Assembly: GCA_947628315.1 (NCBI GenBank) | Contig: CANQZJ010000023.1 | Span: 1-32,628, forward strand | Direction of reading: 5' to 3' | Length of the DNA: 32,628 nucleotides | Origin: an uncultured Oscillospiraceae bacterium | Lineage (GTDB): Bacteria > Bacillota > Clostridia > Oscillospirales > Oscillospiraceae | In this document: positions 13,115 through 27,879 of the stretch, piece by piece | Position numbering within the stretch: the stretch's first letter is position 1 | Layout of the letters: every line of letters starts with the position of its first letter | Notes under the pieces: model-generated | The model's input: only the letters and a program-made list of their open reading frames with translations | What the model was told of the DNA's origin: nothing | Database searches by the model: none | Position numbers and translations under genes: made by a program

Positions 13115-13951
13115 ATGAGCGCAAAAAATAGACGAACGGCACGGGCACAAATCCTGGGGGGAAGAAACGCGGAAGCAGATCTTCTCCGGCTGGTGATGGC
13201 GTTTGTCATCGTTCTCGTCCACAGCCACCGTCTTGAACCTGCCGACATGGGACATTACCCATTCGCCGGCGGTTATCTGGCGGTCGAGTTCTTCTTCATT
13301 CTGTCCGGTTTCCTGGCGGCAAACAAGGTGAAGAGAAACGAAGGCGCCGCCTGTAAGGATGCCCTTGTCTGGACGGTAAAGGAGTATGTGAAGCTCTTTC
13401 CCTGTTTGTTGGCCGTCACGTTCGCGGCATATGGCCTGGACGCGTATATCTCTCACCTCTCGTTTGGGGAGACGCTCACGCACTATGTGTACAGTCTGTT
13501 TGAACTGCTGATGCTGCCAATGTCGGGGAACGTGCAGACATTTGTAAACGCACAGCTCTGGTACCTGTCGGCGCTGTTGGTCATGTTCCCGCTGTTTTAC
13601 GCGTGCTGTATTCGGTCAAAGGACTTTTTCCCGTTTGTCGTGTGTCCCCTCTCAAGCGCGCTGATCTACGGCTATTTCTGCATCACGTACGGCCATATGG
13701 ACATGTGGAATGAATGGACCGGCGCGTTTCGCATAGCGCTTCCTCGGGCGTGGGCCGGTCTTTGCCTGGGAATGACCGTGCACGCGGTTCTGGGATTAAT
13801 TGGAAACGGGGGGGGGCAGGTCTCTCAAAATGTGGAAAGAGGTGCCTGTCTGCCGCTGAACTGGTCTGCCTGGGGACGACGCTCCTCAATATGTATGGAA
13901 GCGGACACGACAGGATCGATTTCATTTGCATCATCCTGTTTGCCGTCGTGA
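13115..13951 (+). CDS. Acyltransferase-3 family protein, N-terminal part as read (frameshifted at G9)
   Basis: Starts at ATG 13115 with GGGAGGGA at 13102-13109. It has the acyltransferase-3 (OafA/WecH-type) N-terminal pattern: LRLVMAFVIVLVHSH with the expected His, and FAGGYLAVEFFFILSGFLAA. About seven membrane segments are present before the protein leaves frame at a run of nine G (13808-13816). Past that point it reads 45 unrelated residues and stops at 13951 (278 residues). The rest of the protein is open in another frame to 14223. Joined, the product would be 369 residues, normal for the family. It should O-acylate a sugar of the glycan across the membrane. One more G, or two fewer, restores the frame, so this is a probable phase-variable gene in the OFF state. 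Confidence 0.8.
   Translation: MSAKNRRTARAQILGGRNAEADLLRLVMAFVIVLVHSHRLEPADMGHYPFAGGYLAVEFFFILSGFLAANKVKRNEGAACKDALVWTVKEYVKLFPCLLAVTFAAYGLDAYISHLSFGETLTHYVYSLFELLMLPMSGNVQTFVNAQLWYLSALLVMFPLFYACCIRSKDFFPFVVCPLSSALIYGYFCITYGHMDMWNEWTGAFRIALPRAWAGLCLGMTVHAVLGLIGNGGGQVSQNVERGACLPLNWSAWGRRSSICMEADTTGSISFASSCLPS
13808..13816 (+). repeat. Poly-G9 tract, probable slipped-strand phase-variation site
   Basis: Nine consecutive G inside the acyltransferase gene, at the exact point where the conserved reading moves from one frame to another. G10 or G7 would put the two halves in frame; G9 gives truncation. Confidence 0.85.
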
Positions 13952-14223
13952 TCGGCATCGTGATGTCGGGCGCGTCTTCCATCCACCCCTATATTTCTGC
14001 CCGGTTCAGTAAGTGCGCTGATCTTAGTATCACTTTGTATATGTGTCACCTGATGATAGGGACATTTGTAGCAAAAGTGCTGATGCCGTCGGCGACGTAC
14101 TTTGAGCGGCTTCCTGTATATCTTGCGCTGTCCGTGGCATGTGCAGTACTGCTCCAGGTCTTCGTCCGGGGCATCCACAGGCTCGCCCCTGCCGCGCGGC
14201 TGAAGAAACATTTTTTGTGCTGA
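13816..14223 (+). pseudogene. Out-of-frame 3' part of the acyltransferase-3 gene
   Basis: Open from the G9 tract to TGA 14221-14223 in the -1 frame relative to the ATG. It encodes the remaining membrane helices: an LGTTLLNMYG segment, FICIILFAVVIG, ITLYMCHLMIGTF with the typical late acyltransferase-3 YxxH-like signature, and a final helix ending in KKHFLC. It has no ribosome binding site of its own. There is no further damage, which fits a reversible switch better than long decay. Confidence 0.75.
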
Positions 14224-14256
14224 TCTGACGATCGCAGTTTTTGATCCAGAGATTTT

Positions 14257-26375: not shown

Positions 26376-26497
26376 AAAGCAAAGCGGAGCATATTGACAT
26401 GCCTGTGAAGAGAGAGAGAGAGAGAGAGAGAGAGAGAGAGACGGCGGCGGCGGCGGGCCGCGGCGATGGTTGCGGGCCGTGCTGTCCGGCGCCGTGA
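26372..26497 (+). other. Leader reading frame of the SGNH gene, out of frame because of (AG)16
   Basis: ATG 26372 overlaps the previous stop (ATGA). The frame reads MKSKAEHIDMPVK, then alternating Arg-Glu through the AG repeat, and ends at TGA 26495-26497 after 41 residues. With one AG fewer, or two more, it would run into the downstream frame and give a 501-residue SGNH protein with a charged N-terminus in front of its membrane helix. Confidence 0.75.
26409..26440 (+). repeat. (AG)16 dinucleotide tract, probable phase-variation switch
   Basis: Sixteen perfect AG units, followed by one A and five CGG units (26442-26456), 12 codons after ATG 26372. Both the ATG frame and the downstream SGNH frame are open across the tract, but they differ by one base here. 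Position and unit length are typical of translational contingency repeats. Confidence 0.9.
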
Positions 26498-27879
26498 TCG
26501 TGGCGCTGACGGTATCTATGCTGTATGGCCTTACCAGACTTGTGGAGAGGAAAGGGAGCCGGCAGCAATTCGCTGACTTTTTTGAAGAGAAAGAAGACTT
26601 TGACGTCTTGTTCCTGGGCTCCAGCCGCACGCGGGACGGTATTTCTCCCATGGAGCTGTGGAATGATTATGGGATAGTTTCTTATGATCTTGCCTTCGAC
26701 GGTGCGATCCTTCCGATCGAGTATTGGCTGCTGATGAATGCGCTGGATTATACATCCCCTAAATTGGTCGTCGTCGACGGATGCTATCTGTCCATGGAAT
26801 ATGGCTTGGATGAGACGCTGGGTTTTTCTCATGCCGGCTTTGACGCTTTCCCTTTGAGCATTACAAAGATCCGCTCTGTGCTCGATCTGACCGAGGATGC
26901 GGGAAATCGGATGGAATTTTTGTGGGATTTTTCCATTTATCACGACCGCTGGAAAGAACTGAGCGCAGGGGACTTTTTCCCAGGAAAAGACGTATGCAAG
27001 GGCGGTAGATTTCGTGTCGGCGTGGCGGCGCCGCTGTCCTTCCCTGATATTGGGCTGGCGGAAATGCTGAGCGAGGACACGAAGGGCGTCATATATCTGA
27101 AAAAGCTCATTGAGGCGTGCCAGGAGCGGGATATTGATGTGCTGATGACCTATATGCCTTTCCCGGCAGGCGAAGCGCAGCAGCGGGATGCGAACAGGCT
27201 CTCCGCTCTGGCAGAGGAGTATGGGGAGGACTGCATCAATTTCCTCAGGACGGATGTTGTGAATTACAACACTGATCTGCTCGATAATTATGAGGATCCT
27301 ACGTGGGGCGTCAACGGACATGTGAATCCGTCCGGCTGCCAGAAGGTCACAGAATATATCGGAAATTACATCAGGGACCATTATGATATACCTGATCGAC
27401 GAAATGATGCGGCCTATCAAGGCTGGTATGACGACTATGCTGAGTATACGAATTATAAAATACAGCTGATGAATGCTGAGCCGGTCCTGATGAACTACTT
27501 TACGCTCCTGTATGATAAGCATATGAGCTGCTGTCTCTGCCTGGCCGGCAGCGGAATATGGAGAGAGGGCGGGGCCTATTGTGAACAACTCAAAAACCTG
27601 GGGATAGACCCGGACCGGCTTTTTATGGGCAGCCCCACGCTCGTCGTCCTGGACAGAATTGGAGGGGCGGTCAGCTATGTTCCGCCTGGCGGGAGCCAGG
27701 AGACGGCATTCGGCACGGTGGCGTTCAACATGCCAGACGGCGTGCCCAACATACAGATAAACGGGATCGACTGTCTGACCGTCGACCCCGCCGCAGCAGC
27801 CGGAGCGGTCGTGATCGACAATGCGGCCGGCGGCGTGGCTACGACGTCCTGTTTCTCCGAGGCGGGGAAGATCGGGTGA
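26470..27879 (+). CDS. SGNH-like membrane-anchored O-acyltransferase partner (AlgJ/DltD-like), phase-variable
   Basis: Open from TTG 26470 (469 residues), but no ribosome site supports this start; the likely true start is ATG 26372, switched out of frame by (AG)16. A single N-terminal membrane helix (VLSGAVIVALTVSMLYG) anchors an extracytoplasmic SGNH-type domain. FLGSSRTRDG (as-read 48-57) carries the presumed catalytic Ser, and GHVNPSG (283-289) the His block; the Asp that often precedes this His is not evident. Proteins of this type (AlgJ, AlgX, PatB, DltD) work with an MBOAT, which is the next gene. It probably O-acetylates the exported glycan. The C-terminal 150 residues are of unknown fold. 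GC is lower than in the GlpAB-like genes. Confidence 0.75.
   Translation: MRAVLSGAVIVALTVSMLYGLTRLVERKGSRQQFADFFEEKEDFDVLFLGSSRTRDGISPMELWNDYGIVSYDLAFDGAILPIEYWLLMNALDYTSPKLVVVDGCYLSMEYGLDETLGFSHAGFDAFPLSITKIRSVLDLTEDAGNRMEFLWDFSIYHDRWKELSAGDFFPGKDVCKGGRFRVGVAAPLSFPDIGLAEMLSEDTKGVIYLKKLIEACQERDIDVLMTYMPFPAGEAQQRDANRLSALAEEYGEDCINFLRTDVVNYNTDLLDNYEDPTWGVNGHVNPSGCQKVTEYIGNYIRDHYDIPDRRNDAAYQGWYDDYAEYTNYKIQLMNAEPVLMNYFTLLYDKHMSCCLCLAGSGIWREGGAYCEQLKNLGIDPDRLFMGSPTLVVLDRIGGAVSYVPPGGSQETAFGTVAFNMPDGVPNIQINGIDCLTVDPAAAAGAVVIDNAAGGVATTSCFSEAGKIG

What the first reader, a model, noticed from the sequence alone, without database searches (positions are those of the whole stretch)
13115..27879. Three repeat-based on/off switches in one glycan locus, all in the OFF phase
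The acyltransferase-3 gene breaks at G9, rfbG copy A breaks at G7, and the SGNH gene is out of frame at (AG)16 just after its ATG. In each case a one-unit change restores a full-length product of family-typical length, and no other damage is seen in the three genes. Two of them should modify the exported glycan by acylation and one supplies a deoxysugar. Together they would give up to eight antigenic states. Multi-gene slipped-strand control is well known in Haemophilus, Neisseria and Campylobacter, but is little described for polysaccharide loci of Clostridia.
Basis: partly seen in the sequence, partly recalled or inferred. Interest (0 to 1): 0.87.

Follow-up and report, generated by a model that had tools for sequence, protein, structure and literature searches.

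The report
Phase-variable sugar-coat genes in Oscillospiraceae
A bacterium of the family Oscillospiraceae probably switches two genes that decorate its sugar coat on and off through error-prone DNA repeats, and related bacteria carry such repeats in the same kind of gene cluster; the mechanism is known from other bacteria but seems little described in this group.

Summary
All three repeats exist as described. Two look like real phase-variation tracts; the third does not. G9 (13808-13816) splits an acyltransferase-3 gene: PF01757 matches both sides, in different frames. An AG run of 33 nt (26409-26441) follows a convincing start of an SGNH gene paired with an MBOAT gene and is the genome's only AG run of six or more units. 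G7 in rfbG copy A has an ordinary length and a full-length paralogue lies 1.5 kb on, so a third switch and eight states are not supported. New evidence: the window's exporter marks related glycan loci across the family. In 38 stretches of such loci 14 G runs of nine or more occur, all on the sense strand; with the window and G292:C11, 17 runs stand against 1.6 expected (P 2e-12). One lies at the equivalent place of an acyltransferase-3 gene, in frame there; another is in the SGNH gene beside MBOAT of the closest relative locus, also in frame. By my reading 6 of 20 tracts are in frame, 10 out, 4 unclear, about as random phase predicts. No reads were available: switching itself is inferred. Known mechanism, apparently new host group.

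The parts
13115..13951 (+). acyltransferase-3 gene, frame before the tract
   Evidence: PF01757, 51.2 bits, cut-off 31; start and letters
13808..13816 (+). G9 tract inside the acyltransferase-3 gene
   Evidence: one of 6 G runs of nine or more in the genome
13816..14223 (+). acyltransferase-3 gene, coding frame after the tract
   Evidence: PF01757 profile 229-324, E 2e-5; aligns to the C-terminal part of L249:17324-18451, E 3e-9
18976..19875 (+). rfbG copy A, frame before the break
   Evidence: TIGR02622 positions 1-280 of 352
19852..19858 (+). G7 run near the break of rfbG copy A; ordinary length
19859..20050 (+). rfbG copy A, C-terminal part in another frame
   Evidence: 67% amino-acid identity to copy B over 58 codons
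20086..21510 (+). rfbH
   Evidence: NF011936 over its cut-off
21507..22589 (+). rfbG copy B, full length
   Evidence: TIGR02622 positions 1-351 of 352, over its cut-off; 80% identical to copy A before the break
26360..26374 (+). GGAGG and ATG start of the SGNH gene
   Evidence: letters; upstream ORF ends at 26375
26409..26441 (+). AG tract, 33 nt
   Evidence: only AG run of six or more units in the genome
26470..27879 (+). SGNH gene body, out of frame with ATG 26372
   Evidence: 24 of 99 relatives have a homologue; 6 of 16 aligned members match PF13472, the window protein itself none
27928..29424 (+). MBOAT acyltransferase
   Evidence: PF03062, 113.9 bits, cut-off 27
1680..3227 (+). ABC exporter, membrane subunit, long form
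   Evidence: PF01061; relatives
3178..3966 (+). ABC exporter, ATPase
   Evidence: PF00005

Best explanation
The window is an ABC-exported glycan locus of an Oscillospiraceae bacterium in which two decorating steps stand under separate slipped-strand switches: a G tract inside an acyltransferase-3 gene, and an AG tract between the start codon and the membrane anchor of an SGNH gene that probably works with the MBOAT next to it. Slippage during replication changes the tract length and with it the frame; in this assembly both are out of frame, so the glycan would lack both acyl decorations in the consensus cell. Shown: the tracts, their rarity, coding sequence on both sides (for SGNH a good start and an intact body), and the recurrence of such tracts in related loci of other genera. 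Inferred: that lengths change within a population, the chemistry, and the benefit (escape from phages or antibodies). The break in rfbG copy A is a plain frameshift beside a full-length paralogue.
For: PF01757 on both sides of G9 in different frames. ATG 26372 with GGAGG and ATGA overlap; single long AG run. 38 fetched stretches of related loci: 14 G runs of nine or more in 9 of them, no C run; sense run lengths 6 to 12 count 66, 4, 1, 8, 4, 1, 1; 20 control stretches, 342 kb, none of eight or more. 17 observed against 1.6 expected in 17 genomes, P 2e-12; without G000 and G292 12 against 0.92, P 3e-10. Matching G9 in an acyltransferase-3 gene of L249, in frame. In-frame G9 in the SGNH gene beside MBOAT in L226, whose exporter is 88-90% identical. 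Four tracts, two of them AG, in G292:C11. Acyltransferase-3 genes in the fetched loci: 5 of 8 with a tract; elsewhere in the 17 genomes 1 of 35 match rows.
Against: No reads: no length variation seen. Three of the four AG tracts compared (window, L100, L137) have the same length, 33 nt. 29 of 38 fetched stretches have no tract of nine or more. None of 17 distant SGNH homologues has a repeat at its 5' end. Of 15 further acyltransferase-3 homologues only one has a long G run. Of 8 tracts near gene starts only 1 is in frame by my reading, which random phase does not exclude. A dinucleotide model expects more long G runs than the genome has. The L249 match rests on 24-28% identity.
Confidence: 0.8

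Rival explanations
1. Irreversible decay: the acyltransferase-3 and SGNH genes are pseudogenes and the repeats are only where the indels fell.
For: Both genes are broken in the only assembly at hand, and most related loci lack such tracts (29 of 38 stretches).
Against: No second damage seen in either gene; comparable tracts are in frame in intact genes of other species (L226, L249); enrichment and sense-strand bias.
Confidence: 0.1
2. Assembly or sequencing error at the repeats; the genes are intact in the cell.
For: The genome is a fragmented assembly, 198 contigs, 76.8% complete, and repeats are where errors fall.
Against: A 33-nt and a 9-nt tract are short against usual reads (recalled); that the tracts exist in these genes and recur in related loci does not depend on the exact length.
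Confidence: 0.06
3. The genes are expressed in spite of the tracts, by an internal start (TTG 26470 in SGNH) or by slippage of polymerase or ribosome.
For: TTG 26470 opens the SGNH frame after the tract.
Against: No ribosome-binding site before TTG 26470 and only one basic residue left before the membrane helix, while ATG 26372 has both a good site and an ATGA overlap. No internal start would rescue the acyltransferase-3 gene.
Confidence: 0.06
4. G7 in rfbG copy A is a third phase-variable switch.
For: The C-terminal part is conserved against copy B (dN 0.24, dS 2.3 over 58 codons), so the break is recent.
Against: G7 is common and lies between the ordinary and the long tracts; no run of G7 or more in six homologues; copy B supplies the same predicted reaction.
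Confidence: 0.1

Closest known systems
Campylobacter jejuni poly-G contingency genes of capsule and LOS (PMC8437040, PMC13317227: abstract starts in listings; PMC6437147: passages on cgtB)
   Same: G tracts of about nine inside glycan genes, several genes at once, frame set by tract length
   Different: Another phylum; length change shown there by sequencing, here not; here the hits are mostly decorating enzymes of ABC-exported glycans
AG-tract methyltransferase gene of Mycoplasma mycoides (PMC3498834: abstract and passages)
   Same: AG repeat inside the coding region; repeat number sets the frame
   Different: DNA methyltransferase, tract 320 bases into the gene; clones with two lengths were found there
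icaC phase variation in Staphylococcus aureus (PMC4117637: listing only; that IcaC is of the acyltransferase-3 family is recalled)
   Same: Repeat-driven switching of a polysaccharide gene in a Gram-positive
   Different: Other repeat, other locus, one gene
Invertible elements (invertons) of gut bacteria, Clostridia included (PMC11892184: passages)
   Same: On/off switching, often near surface genes
   Different: Inversion by a recombinase, not slippage of a repeat

Membership tests
Simple-sequence contingency (phase-variable) gene | Repeat tract in the gene, longer than the genome's usual runs | tested here: met
   G9 and the AG run; G7 does not meet it
Simple-sequence contingency (phase-variable) gene | Coding sequence beyond the tract in a frame that depends on tract length | tested here: met
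   acyltransferase-3: both sides match PF01757; SGNH: start before, body after the tract
Simple-sequence contingency (phase-variable) gene | Recurrence at functionally matching genes in relatives, in and out of frame | tested here: met
Simple-sequence contingency (phase-variable) gene | Tract length varies between cells of one strain, with on/off expression | not testable with these tools
   no reads and no second strain held
Acyltransferase-3 (PF01757) | Match over the curated cut-off | tested here: met
   51.2 bits, cut-off 31, for the part before the tract; the part after it is below the cut-off
SGNH hydrolase family | Match to an SGNH/GDSL model or fold | tested here: inconclusive
   window protein matches no model; 6 of 16 aligned members match PF13472; fold attempt failed, mean pLDDT 35
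SGNH hydrolase family | Catalytic Ser block (GSS) and His block (recalled motifs) | tested here: met
   GSS and an invariant His in alignment A1, though several homologues read GDC at the first
CDP-glucose 4,6-dehydratase (TIGR02622) | Full-length match over the cut-off | tested here: not met
   copy A: over the cut-off but only positions 1-280 of 352; copy B: 1-351 of 352, met

The most novel reading that the evidence does not exclude
Oscillospiraceae carry a family-wide combinatorial switching system: ABC-exported glycan loci, several per genome in some species, whose decorating enzymes (acyl-, methyl-, pyruvyl-like transferases, SGNH) bear long sense-strand G or AG tracts, with tract-bearing 5' ends exchanged between genes and perhaps between families, as the AG-bearing start shared by two different genes in L100 (labelled Oscillospiraceae) and L137 (labelled Lachnospiraceae) suggests.
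Probability: 0.55. Interest if true: 0.75.

Novelty: new member of a known kind. Interest (0 to 1): 0.62.

Why it matters
If true, gut anaerobes known mostly from assemblies diversify their sugar coats by the same hypermutable repeats as Campylobacter and Neisseria. It would explain why such genes look broken in assemblies, would bear on phage host range and immune recognition of commensals, and could be tested at once on existing metagenome reads.

Tried and rejected
Own-species or same-genus orthologues: a pattern scan of GTDB r220 with the SGNH protein confirmed no relative (exact peptide patterns, close relatives only, and records near the own genome may be left out); the N-terminal acyltransferase-3 part matches in 3 of 42 genus genomes, own included, the others distantly. 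PDB searches with the SGNH protein and its profile gave nothing significant. AlphaFold on the single sequence gave mean pLDDT 35, so no fold search was run. Six other AG tracts of the family lie in other genes after a shared motif, not at starts of glycan genes. A first count of acyltransferase-3 genes in the loci, 5 of 6 with a tract, came from a profile seeded with tract-bearing genes; the Pfam search shows 8 in the fetched loci, 5 with a tract, and I use that. My notebook says 10 loci with tracts; the right count is 9 of 38. Papers: (titles and abstract starts; one search listed none; one search listed three papers that I did not open) listed nothing on repeat-driven phase variation of glycan loci in Oscillospiraceae; most subscription papers are not held. 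The lead PMC6437147 proved to concern Campylobacter tracts and community shifts (passages).

Full report
What was claimed. Three repeat switches in one glycan locus, all off: G9 in an acyltransferase-3 gene, G7 in rfbG copy A, AG16 in an SGNH gene.

The observation. All three repeats are present. The window is contig C23 of a 2.69 Mb assembly in 198 contigs, 76.8% complete. The locus holds an ABC exporter, galactofuranosyltransferase-like genes, UDP-galactopyranose mutases, nucleotide-sugar genes, an acyltransferase-3, an SGNH and an MBOAT gene. The acyltransferase-3 gene starts well at 13115 and is split by G9; PF01757 matches both sides in different frames, profile 2-182 and 229-324 (the second below the cut-off, E 2e-5). 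The SGNH gene starts at ATG 26372, GGAGG seven bases before it, with an ATGA overlap with the upstream stop; the AG run of 33 nt lies between this start and the membrane anchor, and the body is in another frame. The frame of rfbG copy A changes near G7; its last 58 codons are conserved against copy B (dN 0.24, dS 2.3), but A and B align poorly at the break, so the exact site is not shown.

More than chance? AG of six or more units occurs at one place in the own genome; a run of eight or more units is expected 0.001 times. G runs of nine or more occur 6 times. A dinucleotide model would expect 88: long G runs are avoided, and the excess shows only against the observed decline. In the first 100 of 111 listed places the run lengths 7 to 11 count 66, 6, 3, 2, 1: elevenfold from seven to eight, then flat. 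G7 is ordinary, G9 is not. Of the six long runs, two break a frame (the acyltransferase-3 gene and a G11 about ten codons into a weakly MerR-like ORF), three are in frame, one lies just before a start codon (my reading of the frames).

Comparative test. The exporter's membrane subunit (window 2286-3224) finds 91 of 400 family genomes at E <= 1e-40. Of 41 places at 53% identity or more I fetched 38 as stretches of up to 20 kb running downstream from the exporter gene; the window and G292:C11 were already held, and one place with about 250 bases downstream was left out. In 586 kb there are 14 G runs of nine or more, in 9 of 38 stretches, all on the sense strand, and no C run of nine or more. Sense G runs of 6 to 12 count 66, 4, 1, 8, 4, 1, 1, two modes with a valley at 7-8; C runs of 6, 7, 8 count 46, 3, 1 and stop. 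Twenty control stretches of the same genomes, 342 kb, three of them under 3 kb, have no run of eight or more. With whole-genome counts for 17 genomes (125 runs in about 47.7 Mb, sizes rounded) their loci hold 17 runs where 1.6 are expected (P 2e-12); without the own genome and G292, which I knew to have tracts, 12 against 0.92 (P 3e-10). Twelve genomes with 13 stretches (118 kb, no tract) were not in that count; at the mean rate they would add about 0.3 to the expectation.

Matching sites. In L249 (G216:C7) an acyltransferase-3 gene has a G9 in frame. The window's part before its tract aligns to it at 28% (residues 17-197 of 231, the last 34 not aligned, against 36 in L249), the part after it at 24%, E 3e-9, starting at residue 3, directly behind the tract in both. 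In L226 (G292:C12), whose exporter subunits are 88 and 90% and whose Glf is 91% identical to the window's, an SGNH gene beside MBOAT has a G9 about fifteen codons after an ATG, in frame: same gene pair, same place, another repeat. G292:C11 has the contig length (96866) and tract of CANQRM010000011.1, labelled uncultured Oscillospiraceae bacterium Lapin-023__bin99. Its locus has AG19 directly after the start of an acyltransferase-3 gene, AG16.5 directly after the start of a 505-aa gene (pyruvyltransferase-like by eye, no Pfam match), G11 near a start, and G9 in frame in an epimerase. A record labelled Lachnospiraceae (L137; a bin, so contamination is possible) shares 330 bases around that AG start at 84.5% but goes on into another gene with an FkbM match. 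The window, L100 and L137 AG tracts have the same length, 33 nt, which shows no variation.

Frames and genes. Over 40 loci (38 plus the window and G292:C11) 11 hold a tract, 20 tracts in all. By my reading 6 are in frame (L226, L228:12720, L249:11463, L249:18008, L253, L099:7356, sense coordinates), 10 out of frame (window G9 and AG, L099 AG19 and G11, L100 AG16.5, L233, L237:10238, L237:16870, L242, and L249:16200, which has an alternative GTG in frame), 4 at a 3' end or unclear (L228:14902, L229, L251, L237:15989). Random phase predicts one third in frame; of 8 tracts near gene starts only 1 is. Fourteen of 20 are in decorating genes: acyltransferase-3 five, methyltransferases five (L242 just below the Pfam cut-off), SGNH two, formyltransferase one (3' end), pyruvyl-like one. 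In the 17 genomes 8 acyltransferase-3 genes lie in the fetched loci and 5 carry a tract; of 35 match rows elsewhere one does (G359:C65). Of 15 further homologues one has a G9 near its 5' end. Six rfbG homologues have no run of G7 or more. None of 17 distant SGNH homologues has a 5' repeat.

Reading. The simplest account is slipped-strand phase variation of two decorations, an acyltransferase-3 and an MBOAT/SGNH pair: four states at most. The rfbG break is a plain frameshift beside a full-length paralogue. Structure, rarity and recurrence are shown; length variation, expression, the acyl group and the benefit are not. The SGNH label rests on relatives (6 of 16 match PF13472) and motifs.

Against known systems. 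The mechanism is that of Campylobacter poly-G genes (PMC8437040, PMC13317227: listings; PMC6437147: passages) and of an AG-tract methyltransferase in Mycoplasma (PMC3498834: abstract and passages). A survey of 99 genomes found G runs of more than two bases generally under-represented in coding genes (PMC2831843: passages). Clostridia have invertible elements (PMC11892184: passages). Eight library searches listed no repeat-driven glycan switching in Oscillospiraceae. I file it as a new member of a known kind.

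Noticed in passing
L101:5997-7040 (-), L102:4994-6055, L105:5591-6658, L103:3148-3534, L104:5823-6527 (-), L106:24-170 (-): In six other family genomes AG tracts of 10 to 31 units follow a shared motif (TTCACAnnnTGTT, then CATGT or AATGT) inside unrelated genes: EcoRI-type adenine methyltransferase in three, HsdS, a hexapeptide-repeat protein, and a fragment without a Pfam match. Possibly a mobile switch cassette.
   Followed up: partly
L100 (G292:C11) and L137:1-330: An AG-bearing gene start is shared at 84.5% between bins labelled Oscillospiraceae and Lachnospiraceae, but the genes behind it differ.
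   Followed up: partly
G292 genome, e.g. C18:29723-30164, C5:63866-65135: 31 G runs of nine or more, the most of the 17 genomes counted; most lie outside the fetched loci.
   Followed up: no
L034:2032-2042, L035:2080-2089, L036:2005-2013: Other long G runs of the own genome: about ten codons into a weakly MerR-like ORF (out of frame), two codons after an ATG of a radical-SAM gene (in frame), and just before the start of an eCIS_core protein.
   Followed up: partly
L059:76-124 and 505-532: Heptanucleotide tandem repeats, ATCGTAA x7 and TCGTAAT x4, near the start of contig C11.
   Followed up: no
17250-18979: A split transketolase pair sits within the CDP-sugar genes, which may point to an unusual branched sugar (inference).
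   Followed up: no
21507-22589: rfbG copy B lacks two residues where copy A reads AAQAIV, so copy B may differ in function although it meets the model.
   Followed up: no
L226:3871-5652 (-): The SGNH protein of the closest relative locus matches PF15711 (ILEI) at its C-terminal end, as do 2 of 16 members of the SGNH alignment.
   Followed up: no
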